This document shows, one piece after another, positions 41,546 through 50,054 of a stretch of 63,606 nt of DNA. A program made the translations under genes and the position numbers. Within the stretch, counting starts at the first letter, position 1, and each line of letters starts with the position of its first letter. The DNA lies in assembly GCA_021735425.1 (NCBI GenBank), contig JAIPGZ010000005.1, forward strand, positions 1-63,606. Direction: 5' to 3'. The notes below the pieces were generated by a model. The model saw only the letters and a list, made by a program, of their open reading frames with translations, made no database searches and was not told the DNA's origin. Origin of the DNA: Candidatus Altimarinota bacterium. GTDB taxonomy: Bacteria; Patescibacteriota; Gracilibacteria; JAHISY01.

Positions 41546-41574
41546 TTGATTTTTAGGCGTATTTTTGCTAAAAT
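41546..41574 (+). promoter_or_regulatory. Promoter TTGATT-N17-TAAAAT of the pilin operon
   Basis: -35 TTGATT (41546-41551), 17-nt spacer, extended -10 TGC-TAAAAT (41569-41574), 21 nt before the TTG start at 41596. The promoter at 44534-44562 has the same -35 and spacing. Confidence 0.75.
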
Positions 41575-41595
41575 GAGAAGATTTAAAAACCAAAA

Positions 41596-42972
41596 TTGGC
41601 TGAAATAAAAAACAAAATCCATCGTTTCTTCGAAAAAAATATTCATCACATTCAAGAAACTCTGTTTGCGGCAACTTTGGTTTTTGTTTTGGGAGGATTT
41701 TTTTTACAAAATATCGGGACAGGAGGGGATTACTTAAAAGCTCTCTTGCTAGCAGATGCCGCCCAGCCACAGGCTGAATTGCTCACAGCAAGTAGCCTCA
41801 GCTTGCCTAAAGAGACTCCCGACGGAGTAGTTAAATTCAACCCAGAAGACATCGCTAAATGGGAAAGTAACGATGCGTTAATCAAAAATATTTTTGAAGA
41901 AACTCTTATTCATAAAATTATAAATGTTTTGAGATATGTCCTCGGCGGTCTTTTTATGCTTTTCCTTGGTTTATATGTTTTGAATTTCCTAACTACAGGC
42001 AACAAAGAAGAAGCTTCTAAAAAATTCAATGATCAGCTGCTTTGGGCCTTCGTCGGTTTCGTTGTTCTCGCGCTCGCCAAACCATTTTCGGAAGCTTTTA
42101 TGTTACTCCGCGACGGTAAGGCTGATCTACTCACAAATCCTGATTCTGTCTTGGCTTCCGCCCAAATTGTTGGGTTTACCTACCGCTCTGCCGCTCATTT
42201 GATTCAATACATCCTCGGCGGCATTGCGCTCATCACGATGGGTGTTTCGGCCTTTCGCATGATCCAAGCTGTCGGCGACGAAGAAACTGTAACGAGCTCA
42301 CGCAAATCAATGGTTTGGTCAGCAATTGCTTTGATAATCGCTGGTGGCAGCGCAATTTTCGTTGATAAAGTTTTCGCCCCCGATGCCGCAACTGGAATCA
42401 TCAGCGACGGCGGGAACGCAGCAGCGCAACTTAAATTAATTTTAGAATCTGGACAATCACAAGCGCGCATTTTGGTTTTGAATTATGTCAAATACTTCCA
42501 AACTTTCCTCGGCGCAGGAGCAGTCCTAATGCTTTTTCTCGCTGGATTCAAAATGGTCTCCGCCGCCGGAAACGAAGAAATCGTCACCAAGCAGCGCCAA
42601 ATGATTACTTGGATTTTTATGGGTCTGGCCATTATTTTGGTTACAGAAGGTCTAGTAAGTGTATTTTTACCAGAAGGCGAAGCTGGAAAAATTGCTTTCA
42701 ACTCGACAACCGCAATCGAAAGCTTCTCCGCGCAAATGGGTGGATTTACGAATTTCCTTTTAACTTTTTCGAGTGCCATCGCCGTCCTCGCGCTCATCGT
42801 CGGTGCAGTCTACATGACGAGCGCCGTCGCTAATCCAGAGCAAGCAGAGAAGGGTAAAAAAATTATTCTCGCCGCGGTACTTGGACTGGTTGTCACGATT
42901 TCGGCTTTCGCGTTGGTGAATACCGTCCTCTCGGGCGGTGAAGTCACCCCCGCAATCAGCATATCGCTTTAA
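41596..42972 (+). CDS. Poly-pilin membrane protein with four VirB2/TrbC-like modules
   Basis: A 458-residue protein (TTG start). After a signal/anchor segment (about residues 22-40) there are four copies of one module: hydrophobic helix, short polar turn (GNKEEA, GDEETV, GNEEIV, NPEQAEKG), basic stretch, second hydrophobic helix. They span about residues 108-168, 198-260, 295-360 and 382-448. A single such module is what a TrbC/VirB2-type pilin contains. The last module has the pilin-like KKIILAAVLGLVVTISAFALVNTVL. Concatenated pilins are unusual; the protein could be a platform or pore instead of a filament subunit. First gene of the operon. Confidence 0.8.
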   Translation: MAEIKNKIHRFFEKNIHHIQETLFAATLVFVLGGFFLQNIGTGGDYLKALLLADAAQPQAELLTASSLSLPKETPDGVVKFNPEDIAKWESNDALIKNIFEETLIHKIINVLRYVLGGLFMLFLGLYVLNFLTTGNKEEASKKFNDQLLWAFVGFVVLALAKPFSEAFMLLRDGKADLLTNPDSVLASAQIVGFTYRSAAHLIQYILGGIALITMGVSAFRMIQAVGDEETVTSSRKSMVWSAIALIIAGGSAIFVDKVFAPDAATGIISDGGNAAAQLKLILESGQSQARILVLNYVKYFQTFLGAGAVLMLFLAGFKMVSAAGNEEIVTKQRQMITWIFMGLAIILVTEGLVSVFLPEGEAGKIAFNSTTAIESFSAQMGGFTNFLLTFSSAIAVLALIVGAVYMTSAVANPEQAEKGKKIILAAVLGLVVTISAFALVNTVLSGGEVTPAISISL

Positions 42973-42979
42973 AATAAAA

Positions 42980-44512
42980 ATGCCAAAAAAAATAATTTTT
43001 ACGATTCGCAAAATCCGGAATGCCAATCCGCGACTACCCCGAATCTATCGCAAGTTCCGGGAAAAAACCTGGAGACTCGCCGTCGTAATTTTTCTAGCAA
43101 TTTTCGGAATTGCGGGTTTATTTTTCTTCGGTGGAAATTTTGAAAATAATATTAAGGCCAGTTTACTCTCCGCCGATGCAAACGAAATTCTCGGCTCTGG
43201 CTTCGAGACTGAGGCTGGCTTCAGCGACAGCGCAACCAATAAAACACTCGACTCAAAAGACGGAGCATTTAAAAAAGATGGTATTGGAATGATTAATGCA
43301 ATGCTTTACAACATCAAAGACTATTTTAAATATATCGTCGGTTCAATCGCGATTCTTTATTTGATAATTGCCGCAACTCAAATCGTGACAGCCGTAGAAA
43401 GCGAAGGTGTTGAGAAGGGTAAGAAAAATTTGAAGTGGAGCATCGTCGCGCTAGTCTCGATTTTTTTAATCGATGTCATGGTGACGGCTTTTTTCGAATC
43501 AGGCGCTACCCCTGGTGAAAGCTTGTTCCAAATCAAAGATGGAGTGGCGATAGAAAGCGAAACAAATTTGATGTCTGCAATCGCAGTATATTTCAAAGCA
43601 AATGTGCGAGTAATCTTCGAATACCTCAAAACTATCGCCGGAGCTTTTGCGATTCTTTTCATTTTCCTCGCTGGCGCCCACATGATCTCCGCCGGTGGCA
43701 ACGAGGAGAAAATTGAAAAAGAAAAAAAGTTTTTGATTCACGCCATCACCGCTTTTGTCACCCTGCTTATTTTGGATCAAATGATTTTCGGATTTATTTA
43801 TCCAGACAATGAGCTTGGTCAAAGCGATCCAATATGCGCAGAATTTATGAATTTCACGACTGAAAATGCGCTCAATCTGCACATAATGGAAAGTGGCGAC
43901 TTCATTCAACTCGCAAAAAATTACGGAATCGATGAAAGCGAAGCAATAGCAAGAATGGAAAAATGTCAGACTGCTGCCGAACTTGGTGTTGCCGGCTCAA
44001 ATCAAATTCTTGGAATTGTGAAATTTTTCGAAAGCCTGATCGGCGGCATTGCTATCTTTTTCATAGTGTATTCGGGGGTCGCGATTATTTCCTCGATGGG
44101 TAACGAAGAACTCGTCACAAAACATAAAAAAACCTTAGCTTGGAGTTTGGCTGGATTAGTAGTGATCATACTTTCGGAAACTCTTGTAAATCAATTTTTG
44201 TTCGTTGTAGATCCAGCGACAGGAGCAGCAACGATAAATGCTGCCTCGGGCATCACCACCATCGCTGGCGTGACGAATTTCATCGCGACTCTCGTCGGAG
44301 TATTTTCTGTAATTTCAATCATCATCGCAGGAATGATTTGGGTCTCCAATTTTGGTAATACGGAAATCGCCGAAAAATCGAAAAAAATAATTCTCGGGGC
44401 AATCGTGGGGGTGATCCTATCAGTCTCGGCTTACGCGATTGTGAACTCAGTCACGACTGGTAATTCCGAAGGAATGGGCGGAAGTGGGATTAACGTGGAA
44501 CTATCAAATTAA
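42980..44512 (+). CDS. Second poly-pilin protein with N-terminal FTIRKIRNANPR motif
   Basis: 510 residues from ATG 42980, 8 nt after the previous stop. A basic N-terminus with FTIRKIRNANPR (residues 7-18), a membrane segment (33-50), then four pilin-like helix-turn-helix modules at about 111-174, 209-276, 344-410 and 431-495, with turns GVEKGKK, GNEEKIEKEKK, GNEELVTKHKK, GNTEIAEKSKK. A soluble insert with two cysteines (DPICAEF, MEKCQT) separates modules 2 and 3. Paralogous to the preceding gene. Probably an inner-membrane component of a secretion or pilus system. Confidence 0.8.
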   Translation: MPKKIIFTIRKIRNANPRLPRIYRKFREKTWRLAVVIFLAIFGIAGLFFFGGNFENNIKASLLSADANEILGSGFETEAGFSDSATNKTLDSKDGAFKKDGIGMINAMLYNIKDYFKYIVGSIAILYLIIAATQIVTAVESEGVEKGKKNLKWSIVALVSIFLIDVMVTAFFESGATPGESLFQIKDGVAIESETNLMSAIAVYFKANVRVIFEYLKTIAGAFAILFIFLAGAHMISAGGNEEKIEKEKKFLIHAITAFVTLLILDQMIFGFIYPDNELGQSDPICAEFMNFTTENALNLHIMESGDFIQLAKNYGIDESEAIARMEKCQTAAELGVAGSNQILGIVKFFESLIGGIAIFFIVYSGVAIISSMGNEELVTKHKKTLAWSLAGLVVIILSETLVNQFLFVVDPATGAATINAASGITTIAGVTNFIATLVGVFSVISIIIAGMIWVSNFGNTEIAEKSKKIILGAIVGVILSVSAYAIVNSVTTGNSEGMGGSGINVELSN

Positions 44513-44533
44513 TCTTCGGTCAAGCATCTTCAT

Positions 44534-44562
44534 TTGATTAGAAAGGGCAGAAGTGCTAAAAT
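44534..44562 (+). promoter_or_regulatory. Promoter TTGATT-N17-TAAAAT
   Basis: -35 TTGATT (44534-44539), 17-nt spacer, extended -10 TGC-TAAAAT (44557-44562), 48 nt before the ATG of the 46-residue gene. It divides the pilin region into two transcription units. Confidence 0.75.
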
Positions 44563-44610
44563 AATTAGATTTGAAAACCAAAATCAAATCAAAAATTTAA
44601 CCCCCATAAA

Positions 44611-44751
44611 ATGGCTAAAACACAAAAAAGGGCGACTCGAACTCTGGTAAAACGCGCTCACTTCTCGGTTCGCACAATCCGCAACGCGAATCCACGACAG
44701 TTTCGCGCACACCGAGCTGGTAGTGTCCTCGCGCGCATCTTCTCGTTTTAA
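44611..44751 (+). CDS. 46-residue basic protein sharing the NANPR motif
   Basis: A short gene (ATG 44611, TAA 44751): very basic, no membrane segment, with FSVRTIRNANPRQFRAHR in residues 18-35. The same motif opens both neighbouring proteins (42980 and 44793), but here it is the whole protein. A strong promoter and a T-AACCC-type leader precede it, so it is likely expressed. It could be a free copy of a targeting or docking peptide. Confidence 0.65.
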   Translation: MAKTQKRATRTLVKRAHFSVRTIRNANPRQFRAHRAGSVLARIFSF

Positions 44752-44792
44752 TTTCAGAAAACAGAGGGTGGCACGGTTAATTTTTTAACTGA

Positions 44793-45947
44793 ATGTCTCC
44801 AAAAACAAAAATAAGTCGAAAGTCGCGACCGGCGGTCAAATTCACCGTCCGCCGGATTGCGAATAGAAATCCACGCCATGCGCGAGTTTTTCATCAATTC
44901 CGACGCAAACTTGCCCGTACCACAGCTGGTCTAATTGCTTTCGGGCTACTCGCAAGTGGAATGTGGATCGGTGACGGCAGCTCGCTGCAAAGTGCGCTGC
45001 TTACCAATGATGGAAATTCGGCCTGTGCAGCCACCGAAATCACAAAACAATTCGAGGATCTTAATATAAGAGTGGCAAACATCAACCGTGATTTCCCTAA
45101 ACAGTTCGCAAATCTCAGCTTTTGCGAAGATAAAAATTGTGCCGCTGAAAAGAAAATTTATCAAACCGAAAAACAGCTTTGGCAGCTGAATTCCGATATT
45201 GCCGAATTAGAAAAAAACACGGCGAAGGCTCGCAAAGATTTCACGGCTGGACTCGCGGCAGCAGAGGATGGAATCCTTTTTTGTGAAAACGAAGATCGTT
45301 GTCAAATTGCCGAAAGGGCTTTGCAGACGGCTCGTATTTGTGAAAAAGAATTTCAAAATATTACGAAATTTTCTGAGCTGCGGACAGCCGTCGCCGAAAA
45401 TTACACTTATCTGAATTCAAAAGGGAAAGAATATCCTGCTTCGGTTTACGCAAAAACATTATTGGAAGATATCTCCAAAAACCGCACCTCTGTGACGAAA
45501 AACGAAGCTGACTACATCACCTGCGTCACCGCAGAAGATGCAAGTGTTTGTCAAAAATATGTCGAAAACAAAAAAGAAGCAGAAGAAAAAATCTCTTCTG
45601 TCACCGAAGAATTGAGCTACCTGAAGGCCGAACTCACCGACAAACTCGACGCAATCGACGCCGACATCATCGCCATACAAATCGGCAAAGAAGATTCCAA
45701 AAACCTCGAACCAAACGTCGGAAAAGGCTGGTGCGAGCAAAATTTGCAAAGTAAAAAATCCGGCTTGAGCACAAAAATCAGCGCAAGCAGTTCACTTAAA
45801 AAGAATTATGAAACGGCACTCGAAAAGTTAAAACAAAAAAAGATTCTACTGGCAATGCAAATCGCTCAGGAAATAGAGGCGACCGAAAAAAAAACTAAAG
45901 CCGAAATTATTTTCAGTATTTGGAGCGTAATCCGCAACACTTTTTAA
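44793..45947 (+). CDS. Secreted or anchored coiled-coil protein with NRNPR motif
   Basis: 384 residues. Basic N-terminus with FTVRRIANRNPR (residues 17-28), one membrane segment (about 43-62), then an extracytoplasmic region rich in long helices likely to form coiled coils (EKQLWQLNSDIAELEKNTAK, EEKISSVTEELSYLKAELTDKL) with about nine cysteines that could make disulfides. No known domain. It is followed after 1 nt by another coiled-coil protein with a pilin module, so the two may interact. Confidence 0.7.
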   Translation: MSPKTKISRKSRPAVKFTVRRIANRNPRHARVFHQFRRKLARTTAGLIAFGLLASGMWIGDGSSLQSALLTNDGNSACAATEITKQFEDLNIRVANINRDFPKQFANLSFCEDKNCAAEKKIYQTEKQLWQLNSDIAELEKNTAKARKDFTAGLAAAEDGILFCENEDRCQIAERALQTARICEKEFQNITKFSELRTAVAENYTYLNSKGKEYPASVYAKTLLEDISKNRTSVTKNEADYITCVTAEDASVCQKYVENKKEAEEKISSVTEELSYLKAELTDKLDAIDADIIAIQIGKEDSKNLEPNVGKGWCEQNLQSKKSGLSTKISASSSLKKNYETALEKLKQKKILLAMQIAQEIEATEKKTKAEIIFSIWSVIRNTF

Positions 45948-45948
45948 G

Positions 45949-47295
45949 ATGAAATTCTTACAAAAACTTCACGCTAATCGAAAACTGCAAATTGCGGTCG
46001 TTGTCTCAGTAGCGACCTTGCTGCTTGTCGTTGGTTGGCAACTGGAAGGTAAAAATGTTTCGACAGAATTACCGCTTCAGAAAACTAACGCATTGGCAGA
46101 AATCCAGCTAGAGGCTGGTGTAGTGCAATCTGCCCGAGACAACTATCTCAAAGCAATCGGGAAAGGTAATGGAGGTGCTTACGATGAATACCAAAATGCT
46201 TTAATTTGCGAAGCAAACCTCAATTCGCGAGTAGGAGAATTAAAAAATTTACGAGCCGAATATCAGCGGCTAATAAGTGAAATCGATTTGCGGGAACGAG
46301 AAATGCGTGTGGCGGCGGCAGTCGCGAAATTCGAGGAAGAGGCCACAACAATCATGACCGAGACTATTGATGAAAATGGAATAGCACTACTCGAAGAAAG
46401 AGAGGCTCAGGCACGCGGAAATTTCGAGAAAATCGCCAACACTTTAAAAAACTGTCTTGAGAATTTTAAAACTTGGGAAAAATGCGAAGCTGAAAAACAA
46501 AATTTATTACTAGCAAAAGAAAGCTATTTCAAAGAGGTCAACGAAATTGAAAATCTCATAAAAGAGAAGCAAGAAGATGCAAAAAAGAAGTTGGAAGCAC
46601 TGCAAGAAAAAGCGGAAGAAGCGTGGTACGAAAAAGAAAAGACCAACGATAAAAAAATAAGTAATCTGCTAAATAAAATTCAAGCAAAAAATTTAAAGGC
46701 TGGTTTGGGTGATGGAATAACATATGAATCTGATGGCCTAGCATTAACTACAACCCTCCCTGATAGTACTCTTAATAATACAATCGGAGCAGCCATAAAT
46801 AATACAATCACAGCAGTCGGCACGCCACTCATCGCCGGCGCGAATATTCTAGGAGGTGCGCTTAAGGCAGGGGACAGTGTAGTCAATGAAATTTTAGACG
46901 GACTTGGTTTGGGTGGCACAAACTCCGACGCAGTCGGCAGCGGTGTCCTCAATGGTCCTGGCGCAATCAAAGGTCTCGAGACTTTCGAAAAAAGTTACAA
47001 AGGCAACACCTACGGCAGCGCAATCGGGATGATTACAGGTTGGACGAATTTCCTTCTTCCTTTCGTCGGCGCCATCGCCATCGCCGCCATCGTCTACGCT
47101 GGCTTTCTTTATCTCACCGCCGCTGGCAGTGATGAGCAAGTCGGCAAAGCCAAGAAAATTATTATTTGGGTCGTCATTGGAATCATCGTAATCTTCTCGG
47201 CTTACGCCATCGTGAATACTCTCCTCGGCAGCAGCAGTGGAGGTGGAGACAACGAAACGAGTATCAGTGTCGGTGGCTTAGATGTTAATTTCTAA
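45949..47295 (+). CDS. Coiled-coil protein with C-terminal pilin module
   Basis: 448 residues. An N-terminal membrane segment (about 13-30), a long helical coiled-coil region (about 50-240, with KEKQEDAKKKLEALQEKAEEA), a Gly/Asn/Thr-rich linker, and from residue 360 a single VirB2/TrbC-like module: GWTNFLLPFVGAIAIAAIVY, turn AAGSDEQVGKAKK, IIIWVVIGIIVIFSAYAIVN. The module is nearly the same as in the next gene. The start lies 1 nt after the previous stop. Confidence 0.75.
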   Translation: MKFLQKLHANRKLQIAVVVSVATLLLVVGWQLEGKNVSTELPLQKTNALAEIQLEAGVVQSARDNYLKAIGKGNGGAYDEYQNALICEANLNSRVGELKNLRAEYQRLISEIDLREREMRVAAAVAKFEEEATTIMTETIDENGIALLEEREAQARGNFEKIANTLKNCLENFKTWEKCEAEKQNLLLAKESYFKEVNEIENLIKEKQEDAKKKLEALQEKAEEAWYEKEKTNDKKISNLLNKIQAKNLKAGLGDGITYESDGLALTTTLPDSTLNNTIGAAINNTITAVGTPLIAGANILGGALKAGDSVVNEILDGLGLGGTNSDAVGSGVLNGPGAIKGLETFEKSYKGNTYGSAIGMITGWTNFLLPFVGAIAIAAIVYAGFLYLTAAGSDEQVGKAKKIIIWVVIGIIVIFSAYAIVNTLLGSSSGGGDNETSISVGGLDVNF

Positions 47296-47296
47296 A

Positions 47297-47809
47297 ATGA
47301 TAAAAATAAATAAATCTCGTAATAATCGCATTGTCACTGGAGTCATCCTCGGAGCAGTGGTTCTGGTTGTTGCAATCTTCGGTCGAGTGGCAGGAGAAAA
47401 TCTCAAGGCAGCAATCAGCATTGACGGAATTTTACCCGGCATCTCAATCGACACCGACGAATTTAGTCTGAACGCCGGTGGCGGCAGCAATCAAGCGCCT
47501 GGCTGCGGTGGCGGCAACTGTCTCGTCGCACCTGACGCCGGCGAATACAGTGGTATTGCGGTCGAAACATCTTTTCGCCAGTTTCTGATTACCTGGACTA
47601 ATTTTGCCTTACGCTTCCTCGCTTTAATCGCGATGATTGCTTTAATCTACGCTGGCTTCCTTTATGTCACTGCTGCGGGCAACGACGAGCAAGCAGGTAA
47701 GGCTAAAAAGATTATCATCTGGGTCGTCACTGGAATTGTCGTGATTCTGCTCGCTTATGCTTTAGTCAATACTTTAATTACAAAAGGTCCTACTGGCAGC
47801 GACCTTTAA
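47297..47809 (+). CDS. VirB2/TrbC-like pilin
   Basis: 170 residues from ATG 47297 (an in-frame ATG at 47282 overlaps the previous gene). Signal-like hydrophobic start (about 13-30), a small outer segment with APGCGGGNC, then a single pilin module from residue 92: TWTNFALRFLALIAMIALIYA, turn AAGNDEQAGKAKK, IIIWVVTGIVVILLAYALVN. This is the standard size and layout for a type IV secretion pilin in this lineage. Confidence 0.82.
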   Translation: MIKINKSRNNRIVTGVILGAVVLVVAIFGRVAGENLKAAISIDGILPGISIDTDEFSLNAGGGSNQAPGCGGGNCLVAPDAGEYSGIAVETSFRQFLITWTNFALRFLALIAMIALIYAGFLYVTAAGNDEQAGKAKKIIIWVVTGIVVILLAYALVNTLITKGPTGSDL

Positions 47810-47819
47810 TTTTAAAAAA

Positions 47820-50054
47820 ATGGAAAACCAAAATCTTTCTGAATTCGATGAAATCGGGATTGGTCTACAACCGACCGTCTCCTCGGATTCTCCGCCAAAT
47901 CCGGAGAAACCGACCGTGGTGATTACAGAAAATCCAGAAGATCCCAAGCCTTCAAAAACAACGAATCAAAATAATCCACCAAGTCCGAAAAAAATGGTTA
48001 TTGGCTGTCTGTTTTTCTTTTTCATACTTTTTATAATTCTCGTCGTAGCAATGATTTTCGGTCTCCGCGCCGGAGAAGCGACAATCATCAGCTTCGGTTT
48101 AAATCCGGCTGATTTCAAAAATTGGACAATTGGAATAGTAAGCATATTTTTCGGTTTAATCTCTCTCGTCAGCATAATTTCAATTGTTTATCATCTGGGA
48201 GTTAGGTTACTTGCTTCAAAAGACGCTATTTTCGAGAAATCTAGGGCAGCAATGAAAAGTTTAGTGAGCGGAATCATTTTAGTGATTGCACTCGCGATTT
48301 GGTATTTCGTTTATAGTTATGTTTCCAGATTCGAGATGAAACCGCCGGAATTACCAATCGAAATTGTCACAAATCCAGCCTACACTTATGAGTTAGTTTC
48401 ACCGATTCAAATTGAGTTTTCTGCTGAAAGAATCACCGACAAATTCAAAAAAGCTTACGATCTCGTAAGCTATGAATGGGATAAGGAGGGTGACGGAAAA
48501 ATCGACGCCACTGGTCAAAAAGTCACAATCTACTTCCCAGACGGCGGCAAAAATAATGGGGTTTACGATGTCAAGCTGTTCATAAAAATGCAGCCCAAAG
48601 GCGGAGGAGACACAATCGCGAAAGACTATTCGAAAACTATTTCAATTTCACGACAGGACCTTTACGGCGAAATAAAAGTCGATCGGGAGTCTGGTGAAAT
48701 ACCTTTGACAATTAAGTTTGACGCCGACACCATTGCTGATCCGGACGACTCTCGAATCATAAATTATAGCTGGGATCTCGACGCCGATGGCCGACCTGAC
48801 CGAGACGGATTTTTATACCGTAACACCGAGTGGACTTTCGACACGATCGGAGAACACACCGTCAGTCTTCTGGTAACTTCAGAAGATTTTGACGAGAAAG
48901 GCAATCACGAGACAAAAACTTTTACGAAAAAAATCACAGTCTACGAACCAGTTGGCAGTACAGATGCAGAAGTTTGGATTGAGACAAATACCAAAAAAGG
49001 CTTTGCACCACTCTCCGTAAATTTCAGTGCACAGCAAAAAGTTATTAACGGTAAAAAAGCCAAGATTGAAAACTACGAGTGGAAAATTGGCGATGGACTG
49101 GAAACTATTCGCGGCGAACGTGCTCATTACACTTTTGAAAAAGCAGGAGTTTACCCCGTTGAGCTCACAGTTACTTTTGTGAACGGGCAGATAAAACATG
49201 AAATGGTTGAAATCGTGGTAACTGATGAAAGCATTGCCCCAAAGGCAATTATCAAAACTGAGCCAACAATAAGCGCCCAGTACAAAACTTTGACTGGTCG
49301 TGCACCTTTCAAAGTAAAATTCGACGCCAGCCAATCAGAAGATGCCGACAACAACGTTGTGAAGTACGATTGGGATTTCGATGGAGACGGTCAGTGGGAT
49401 GCAGAAGGCAGCATCGTGGAACACCAATTTTTAGATTCCGGAAATTATAAAACTACATTGCGTATTACCGATTCAGATGAAAATGAATCTCGTGCTGAAA
49501 TTAATGTCAAAGTGGGCGATGAAAATGCCGTAATTGATTTTGGAGTGAATAAGTTATCTGGTGCTGCCCCACTAACAGTCGATTTCGATGCTAGCGGCTC
49601 ACGAGTTCCGAAAGGCAAAAAAATTATTTCTTACGAATGGGATTTTAACCCAAGCCTGAAGGGTAGAGATAAACAAACCTTTATCTACGAAAGATCTCAG
49701 ACTTCACATATTTTCGATTCAATCGGCGAACACCTTGTGCAGCTGACTTTGCACGCTGATGACGGCAGCGAATATTTTGATACTATTAAAATAGTGGCGA
49801 CTTACCCCTCATTAAACGCAGAATTTTCTGCTTCGCGTTTGAGTGGAAACGCCCCTTTGGGAATTTCTTTTGACGCAAGCGAATCAACCGGAAAAATCTC
49901 AAAATTCGAATGGATTTTTAATGACGGATCGACGAGCGCCGAAAAATCTCCTACTCATATTTTCGAGAAAAAAGGCATTTACGAAGTAATCTTGAAGGTT
50001 CACGATTCGCTGAGCAATGTCTCTCAAACTAGTAAAACTATTACTGTTAATTAG
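47820..50054 (+). CDS. Membrane-anchored six-PKD-domain surface protein
   Basis: 744 residues. A Pro/Asn-rich cytoplasmic start, three membrane segments (about 60-82, 102-128, 146-168), then six PKD-like beta-sandwich domains. Their signature strands read YEWDKEGDGKID, YSWDLDADGRPDRDG, YEWKIGDG, YDWDFDGDGQWDAEG, YEWDFNP and FEWIFNDG, and most end in a HxFxxxGxYxVxL pattern. PKD domains mediate protein or sugar contacts at the surface. It starts 10 nt after the pilin gene and closes the operon. Confidence 0.85.
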   Translation: MENQNLSEFDEIGIGLQPTVSSDSPPNPEKPTVVITENPEDPKPSKTTNQNNPPSPKKMVIGCLFFFFILFIILVVAMIFGLRAGEATIISFGLNPADFKNWTIGIVSIFFGLISLVSIISIVYHLGVRLLASKDAIFEKSRAAMKSLVSGIILVIALAIWYFVYSYVSRFEMKPPELPIEIVTNPAYTYELVSPIQIEFSAERITDKFKKAYDLVSYEWDKEGDGKIDATGQKVTIYFPDGGKNNGVYDVKLFIKMQPKGGGDTIAKDYSKTISISRQDLYGEIKVDRESGEIPLTIKFDADTIADPDDSRIINYSWDLDADGRPDRDGFLYRNTEWTFDTIGEHTVSLLVTSEDFDEKGNHETKTFTKKITVYEPVGSTDAEVWIETNTKKGFAPLSVNFSAQQKVINGKKAKIENYEWKIGDGLETIRGERAHYTFEKAGVYPVELTVTFVNGQIKHEMVEIVVTDESIAPKAIIKTEPTISAQYKTLTGRAPFKVKFDASQSEDADNNVVKYDWDFDGDGQWDAEGSIVEHQFLDSGNYKTTLRITDSDENESRAEINVKVGDENAVIDFGVNKLSGAAPLTVDFDASGSRVPKGKKIISYEWDFNPSLKGRDKQTFIYERSQTSHIFDSIGEHLVQLTLHADDGSEYFDTIKIVATYPSLNAEFSASRLSGNAPLGISFDASESTGKISKFEWIFNDGSTSAEKSPTHIFEKKGIYEVILKVHDSLSNVSQTSKTITVN

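What the first reader, a model, noticed from the sequence alone, without database searches (positions are those of the whole stretch)
41546..50054. Operon with concatenated (four-module) pilin-like proteins
Two adjacent proteins (41596-42972, 42980-44512) each contain four tandem copies of the helix / GNEE-K-rich turn / helix module that normally makes up a single VirB2/TrbC-type pilin. Two further genes (45949, 47297) carry one module each, fused to a coiled coil or to a short signal domain. A six-PKD protein and a disulfide-rich coiled-coil protein complete the cluster. Covalent poly-pilins are not part of the classic type IV secretion set as I know it. They might form a fixed-stoichiometry membrane ring or channel, with the single-module proteins as mobile subunits.
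Basis: partly seen in the sequence, partly recalled or inferred. Interest (0 to 1): 0.85.

Follow-up and report, generated by a model that had tools for sequence, protein, structure and literature searches.

The report
Covalent multi-pilin membrane proteins in Patescibacteria
An uncultured, probably host-attached tiny bacterium and nearly all its relatives make proteins in which three or four secretion-pilus subunits are joined head to tail in a fixed order, next to subunits carrying long outward-facing stalks; this suggests a surface machine with built-in subunit counts and order, though what it does has not been shown.

Summary
P0001 (41596-42972) and P0002 (42980-44512) each carry four VirB2-like T4SS_pilin (PF18895) hairpins. 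P0004 and P0005 carry one each. P0006 has six PKD domains behind a divergent N-terminal hairpin. The cluster is conserved: all five window-family genomes readable at this locus have 4+4, and 23 of 34 sampled genomes from other families of the class have adjacent 3+3 pairs, often followed by giant PKD proteins with an N-terminal pilin hairpin. Proteins with 2, 3 or 4 modules also occur inside pilin arrays of other Patescibacteria classes. Modules are position-specific across families (85/132 assigned correctly against about 22 when shuffled). Internal modules carry a helix-2 acidic residue where terminal modules and single pilins carry Tyr/Phe. Arrays of separate VirB2-like pilin genes are known in Patescibacteria and essential in Southlakia (six genes); the covalent form was not found described in the open literature searched. 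The likeliest role is a tethered, fixed-order pilin platform of the Patescibacteria T4SS/pilus, presenting extracellular PKD and coiled-coil stalks for host contact. The ring or channel idea is untested: the AlphaFold models are low-confidence (pTM 0.42 and 0.50).

The parts
41596..42972 (+). P0001, 458 aa: N-terminal membrane anchor (aa ~19-41), short extracellular stretch, four VirB2-like pilin hairpins (poly-pilin A)
   Evidence: PF18895 four stretches, E 2.8e-24; module HMM; orthologues 53-70% identical
41920..42087 (+). P0001 module 1
   Evidence: module HMM aa 109-164, 1e-12
42199..42363 (+). P0001 module 2
   Evidence: module HMM aa 202-256, 4e-15
42487..42657 (+). P0001 module 3
   Evidence: module HMM aa 298-354, 1e-19
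42748..42918 (+). P0001 module 4 (terminal type, Tyr/Phe in helix 2)
   Evidence: module HMM aa 385-441, 3e-16; scores as class A3
42980..44512 (+). P0002, 510 aa: Arg-rich cytoplasmic N-terminus, membrane anchor, four pilin hairpins (poly-pilin B)
   Evidence: PF18895 four stretches, E 9.1e-30; orthologues 50-66% identical
43319..43483 (+). P0002 module 1
   Evidence: module HMM 9e-16
43619..43783 (+). P0002 module 2
   Evidence: module HMM 9e-17
44018..44188 (+). P0002 module 3
   Evidence: module HMM 1e-20
44273..44443 (+). P0002 module 4 (terminal type)
   Evidence: module HMM 4e-15; scores as class B3 in 4 of 5 family members
44611..44751 (+). conserved 46-aa Arg-rich small protein sharing the FSVRxIRNANPR motif with the N-termini of P0002 and P0003
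   Evidence: present in the window and four relatives; window vs L015: 13 synonymous and 1 nonsynonymous codon differences in 22 codons
44793..45947 (+). P0003, 384 aa: same N-terminal motif, likely anchor, extracellular coiled coil with conserved Cys; no pilin module
   Evidence: no significant Pfam family; 7 Cys invariant in 6 orthologues
45949..47295 (+). P0004, 448 aa: N-terminal anchor, extracellular coiled coil, C-terminal pilin hairpin (47044-47214)
   Evidence: PF18895 1.2e-9; TrbC 2.9e-5; module HMM 4e-23
47297..47809 (+). P0005, about 170-175 aa: anchor or signal plus one pilin hairpin (47597-47767)
   Evidence: PF18895 4e-10; module HMM 3e-23
47820..50054 (+). P0006, 744 aa: cytoplasmic tail, membrane anchor, divergent pilin-like hairpin (48114-48317), six extracellular PKD domains
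   Evidence: PKD_4 six stretches, E 2.7e-54; hairpin recognised in homologue L083:8078-10207 (E 8.7e-6); family conserved across the class

Best explanation
P0001 and P0002 are poly-pilins: VirB2/TrbC-type two-helix pilin hairpins fused in a fixed order and held in the cytoplasmic membrane by an N-terminal anchor. Each hairpin would have its Lys-rich loop in the cytoplasm and its linkers outside. The pair probably assembles with the single-module pilins P0004 and P0005 into a hetero-oligomeric platform whose subunit order and number are set by the covalent links. PKD and coiled-coil parts attached to pilin-type anchors (P0004, P0006) and the anchored coiled coil P0003 project outward for contact with a host cell. 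The platform is probably worked or assembled by the T4SS ATPase VirB4 encoded elsewhere in the genome, as the essential separate-gene pilin array of Saccharibacteria presumably is. Shown here: module identity, fusion, synteny, position-specific specialisation and class-wide conservation. Inferred: topology, hetero-oligomer, VirB4 dependence and host contact.
For: Four PF18895 domains in each large protein. 4+4 in all five window-family genomes readable at this locus and adjacent 3+3 in 23 of 34 other class genomes, two of them only after TGA is read as Gly. Downstream giant proteins (about 1500-2060 aa) with N-terminal pilin hairpin plus PKD repeats, and a P0006-type PKD protein, in many families. 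Position-specific modules: 85/132 assigned across families against a shuffled mean of 22.4, maximum 28. Internal modules carry Asp/Glu at one helix-2 site (49-70%) and terminal modules none, with 91-100% aromatic there; single pilins are 71% aromatic. Outside the class, 2-, 3- and 4-module proteins sit inside arrays of single pilins. Multi-module pilins lie a few kb from VirB4 in G274 and in G009. VirB4 is present in the window's genome and in 39 of the 40 genomes searched. S. epibionticum has six VirB2-like pilins as an essential array (PMC12857230, PMC10633639), close to 2x3.
Against: VirB4 is not in this locus in the window's genome (C10) nor beside most 3+3 pairs, so functional coupling is inferred. 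No pilus, complex or phenotype is known for this class. AlphaFold models are low-confidence and no multimer was run. No solved structure matched by sequence or fold. Two genomes (G017, G035) have the modules split as 1, 2, 1, so covalent linkage is not essential in all lineages.
Confidence: 0.5

Rival explanations
1. A VirB4-independent surface-anchoring complex: the hairpins were recruited from pilins but now act only as a membrane scaffold holding PKD and coiled-coil adhesins, with no link to secretion or a pilus.
For: The locus is separate from virB4 in the window's genome and beside housekeeping genes (nusB, RNase III, nusG, ribosomal proteins) in other families. PKD stalks are the most conserved partners.
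Against: Multi-module pilins lie near virB4 in G274 and in G009. VirB4 is almost universal in the class. The separate-gene array of S. epibionticum is inside its essential T4SS cluster (PMC10633639).
Confidence: 0.25
2. A polyprotein: the multi-module proteins are cut in the linkers into single pilins that polymerise as an ordinary VirB2 pilus.
For: The terminal module resembles free single pilins. Split arrangements exist in some relatives (G017, G035, G015). Linkers are extracellular by inferred topology and long enough to cut in the 4-module proteins.
Against: Spacing is short and regular in 3-module proteins (median 86.5 aa from module start to module start, against a 57-aa core). Internal modules carry membrane charges that free pilins lack. 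No signal-peptidase-like site close after the second helix was seen by eye.
Confidence: 0.13
3. A c-ring-like ion-translocating hairpin ring, analogous to multi-hairpin V/A-ATPase c subunits, using the helix-2 acidic residue.
For: Two-helix hairpins fused in series with an acidic residue in helix 2; multi-hairpin c subunits exist in methanogens (PMC2359735).
Against: No c-subunit profile match. The acid lies near the extracellular end of helix 2, is absent from terminal modules, and is present in only about half to 70% of internal modules. No rotor partner gene.
Confidence: 0.04

Closest known systems
VirB2-like pilin arrays of Patescibacteria (Quinonero-Coronel et al. 2025, PMC12102498; S. 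epibionticum SEML1_0006-0019, PMC10633639)
   Same: Adjacent, divergent PF18895/VirB2-like pilin genes, 2-11 per array; chromosomal; same phylum
   Different: There described as separate genes, in S. epibionticum six within the T4SS cluster. Here 3-5 pilins are fused into one protein, usually away from virB4, with PKD-pilin fusion proteins; fusion is not mentioned in the parts of that paper read here
VirB2/TrbC/TraA conjugative pilins (F pilus, PMC5018250)
   Same: Two hydrophobic helices joined by a short basic loop that is cytoplasmic in the membrane form
   Different: Classic pilins are single small subunits that polymerise with five-start symmetry; the poly-pilins are covalent, anchored and differentiated by position
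NF045849, Mbov_0395 family pilin-like conjugal transfer protein
   Same: All four pilin-bearing proteins match; P0001 and P0002 exceed the 40-bit cut-off (57.4 and 43.2)
   Different: That model is 80 positions; the cut-off is passed only by summing four repeats, and P0004 and P0005 stay below it
Multi-hairpin V/A-ATPase c subunits (Methanopyrus kandleri, 13 hairpins; PMC2359735)
   Same: Concept only: two-helix membrane hairpins fused in series to fix subunit number
   Different: No sequence relation found; different location of the acidic residue; no rotor genes

Membership tests
T4SS pilin superfamily (PF18895 / VirB2-TrbC) | Two hydrophobic helices joined by a short basic loop, matching the family profile above the curated cut-off | tested here: met
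   Four stretches each in P0001 and P0002, one each in P0004 and P0005, all proteins above 26.6 bits; hydrophobicity; helix-loop-helix per module in AlphaFold models
T4SS pilin superfamily (PF18895 / VirB2-TrbC) | Small single-domain subunit | tested here: not met
   P0001 and P0002 are four-domain proteins of 458 and 510 aa; P0005 meets it
T4SS pilin superfamily (PF18895 / VirB2-TrbC) | Gene beside virB4 and other T4SS genes | tested here: not met
   The window's virB4 is on another contig, C10; multi-module pilins within about 10 kb of virB4 only in some relatives (G274, G009)
T4SS pilin superfamily (PF18895 / VirB2-TrbC) | Polymerises into a pilus | not testable with these tools
   Needs microscopy or biochemistry
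Patescibacteria VirB2 pilin array (PMC12102498) | Two or more PF18895-positive genes in tandem or separated by one non-pilin gene | tested here: met
   P0001 and P0002 are directly adjacent, as are P0004 and P0005; the small ORF and P0003 lie between the two pairs
Mbov_0395 pilin-like family (NF045849) | Score above 40 bits as an 80-residue single-domain protein | tested here: inconclusive
   57.4 and 43.2 bits for P0001 and P0002 by summing repeats; 33.3 and 37.3 for P0004 and P0005
F/V/A-ATPase c subunit | Matches an ATP synthase c-subunit profile, with a mid-membrane carboxylate in each hairpin | tested here: not met
   No such profile among Pfam hits; acid absent from terminal modules and not universal in internal ones

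The most novel reading that the evidence does not exclude
A fixed-order ring of covalently linked, individually specialised VirB2 hairpins (6 in most families, 8 in the window's) forms a permanent membrane channel or pilus base that does the work of the VirB6 subunit, reported as undetectable in Gracilibacteria (PMC12102498), and carries PKD stalks for exchange with a host cell.
Probability: 0.15. Interest if true: 0.85.

Novelty: new variant of a known kind. Interest (0 to 1): 0.6.

Why it matters
Why Patescibacteria carry many divergent VirB2-like pilins instead of one is open; antigenic variation or host adaptation has been suggested (PMC12102498). Fusion of three to five of them in a conserved order across a whole class argues instead for a hetero-oligomer with defined positions, since covalent linkage would make free swapping of variants pointless. 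It gives a built-in guide to subunit order and number for structural work on a machine that is essential in the one species tested. It also links the pilins to PKD surface stalks, candidate host-contact parts.

Tried and rejected
Ring closure by AlphaFold: models of P0001 and P0002 were low-confidence and whole-model Foldseek against PDB gave nothing significant. PDB sequence search gave nothing meaningful. Plasmid and phage collections have no relative of P0001, and P0001, P0002, P0003 and P0005 match no PHROG, so there is no sign of a mobile element. The viral-contig scan failed because the alignment had no conserved stretch. NF058578 'CPR pilus PamR' matches only PKD/FnIII-like parts far below its cut-off and its literature was not found. 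A helix-2 acid / helix-1 base salt bridge: association is weak (Fisher p 0.011 within a module for columns 4 and 53; not corrected for relatedness). Promoter and terminator scans are at chance level. The longer GTG start for P0002 (42938) was rejected because orthologues align from ATG 42980.
Full report
OBSERVATION. The two adjacent proteins were translated as stated. Pfam-A gives four T4SS_pilin (PF18895) stretches in each (E 2.8e-24 and 9.1e-30) and one each in P0004 and P0005; P0006 has six PKD_4 domains. The modules are two hydrophobic helices around a G-N-E-E ... K-x-K-K loop. This is far beyond chance.

EXTRA FEATURES IN THE WINDOW. P0006 has a divergent pilin-like hairpin before its PKD domains. 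It is weak in P0006 itself (NF045849 E 0.09), but a homologous PKD protein in another family scores 8.7e-6 to PF18895. It shares the motif FSVRxIRNANPR with the cytoplasmic N-termini of P0002 and P0003, so these three proteins may be recognised by a common partner (inference).

TOPOLOGY. Each protein starts with a basic segment and a hydrophobic anchor. With the positive-inside rule (established knowledge) and the known cytoplasmic loop of F pilin in the membrane (PMC5018250), the Lys-rich loops would be inside and the linkers, coiled coils and PKD domains outside. This is inference.

CONSERVATION. In the 40 genomes searched I took regions of up to 20 kb and counted modules per ORF. All five window-family genomes readable at this locus (G000, G001, G003, G004, G005) have adjacent 4+4; the sixth, G002, is cut off by the contig end. 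Of the 34 genomes from other families of the class, 23 have adjacent 3+3, including two TGA-recoded ones once code 25 is used. G039, G019 and G015 have shorter or interrupted versions, G017 and G035 have 1, 2, 1, and six genomes had no clear pair in what was looked at. An evenly drawn phylum sample found further 3-module pairs in the class. In other classes, multi-module genes sit in arrays of single-module pilins: 1,1,4,1,1,1,1 (L127); 1,4,1,1,1,1 (L128); 1,2,1,1,1 (L129, L132); 1,1,1,1,3 (L140); 1,2,2,1,2 (L143). L139 has one 3-module protein. Within the class, G264 also has a 5-module protein (L137). Pfam confirmed module numbers in the ones scanned, and L137 also matches TrbC/VIRB2 (PF04956) at 5e-14.

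NEIGHBOURS. In the window's family the order is A, B, small ORF, P0003, P0004, P0005, P0006. In several other families the pair is followed by a giant protein of about 1500-2060 aa, with an N-terminal pilin hairpin and PKD repeats, and often then a P0006-type PKD protein. Flanking genes are housekeeping (nusB, RNase III, nusG, L1, L11). VirB4 (PF19044) is present in 39 of the 40 genomes but on another contig in the window's genome and not beside most pairs. In G274 a 1,2,2,1,2 array starts about 6 kb from virB4, and in G009 a 1,2,1 array is about 6 kb from virB4.

MODULES ARE SPECIALISED. Leave-family-out assignment of modules to A1..B3 is right in 85 of 132 cases; labels shuffled within loci give a mean of 22.4 and a maximum of 28. 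Most errors are among internal positions (A1, A2, B1, B2), while terminal positions A3 and B3 are assigned almost without error. The window's A module 1 scores as A1 and its module 4 as A3; B module 4 scores as B3 in 4 of 5 family members; its internal modules are ambiguous, compatible with an added internal module in each protein. Single pilins of the family score mostly as terminal type. At one helix-2 column internal modules have Asp/Glu in 49% (3-module) and 70% (4-module), terminal modules in 0%; terminal modules are 91-100% and single pilins 71% aromatic there. A Lys/Arg in helix 1 is likewise frequent in internal modules and nearly absent in terminal ones. So internal modules are not interchangeable copies of a polymerising pilin.

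STRUCTURE. AlphaFold2 with 28-row alignments predicts helix-loop-helix per module but low-confidence packing (P0001 pLDDT 66.6, pTM 0.42; P0002 67.9, 0.50). Foldseek against PDB has no match at E<=0.001. Ring closure is neither supported nor excluded.

KNOWN CONTEXT. Quinonero-Coronel et al. (PMC12102498) report 441 arrays of 2-11 VirB2-like pilin genes in 383 Patescibacteria assemblies and no VirB6 homologue in Gracilibacteria; the parts read do not mention fusion. S. epibionticum has six VirB2-like pilins in an essential array (PMC12857230; PMC10633639). A search for phrases such as 'tandem pilin', 'polypilin' and 'fused pilins' found no paper; the library lacks most subscription journals and preprints, and supplements were not read, so absence is not proof.

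MECHANISM. Shown: fusion, order conservation, specialisation, synteny with PKD proteins. Inferred: a membrane platform of fixed order in which the covalent links set neighbours and number, extracellular stalks on pilin-type anchors, assembly or energisation by the genome's VirB4, and a role in host contact or exchange. The near match of 3+3 to the six separate pilins of S. epibionticum is suggestive only; the 4+4 of this family and array totals from 5 to 10 elsewhere show that six is not universal.

VERDICT. A real, conserved and apparently undescribed architecture, best filed as a new variant of the Patescibacteria VirB2-like pilin arrays. Its strength is the class-wide conservation and positional specialisation; its weakness is the lack of any direct functional or structural evidence.

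Noticed in passing
44611-44751 +: Unlisted 46-aa Arg-rich gene, conserved in the window and four relatives with 13 synonymous against 1 nonsynonymous codon differences (window vs L015); shares the FSVRxIRNANPR motif with P0002 and P0003 N-termini.
   Followed up: yes
41546-41592 and 44534-44592 +: The stretches before P0001 and before the small ORF look alike (TTGATT, 17 nt, TAAAAT with TG, then AGATTTnAAAACCAAAAT): possibly a repeated promoter giving two transcription units. The scan as a whole is at chance level.
   Followed up: partly
L085 (G036) and L086 (G027): These relatives need TGA read as an amino acid (code 25); with it both show clean 3+3 poly-pilin pairs that standard-code searches miss.
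   Followed up: yes
L137:6998-8377 (G264): A five-module pilin protein (459 aa), also matching TrbC/VIRB2 at 5e-14.
   Followed up: partly
L063:9056-10432 (G022): A DUF4331 protein gene lies between the poly-pilin pair and the PKD giant.
   Followed up: no
L143:2-3025 (G274): A 1008-aa protein with about 9 hydrophobic segments beside the multi-module pilin array and virB4: a VirB6-like candidate.
   Followed up: no
G009 (L081 and L082); possibly G030, G039: G009 has two pilin arrays: a 1,2,1 array near virB4 and a separate 3+3 pair; G030 and G039 also have pilin hits near virB4 besides their 3+3 or 3+2 pair.
   Followed up: partly
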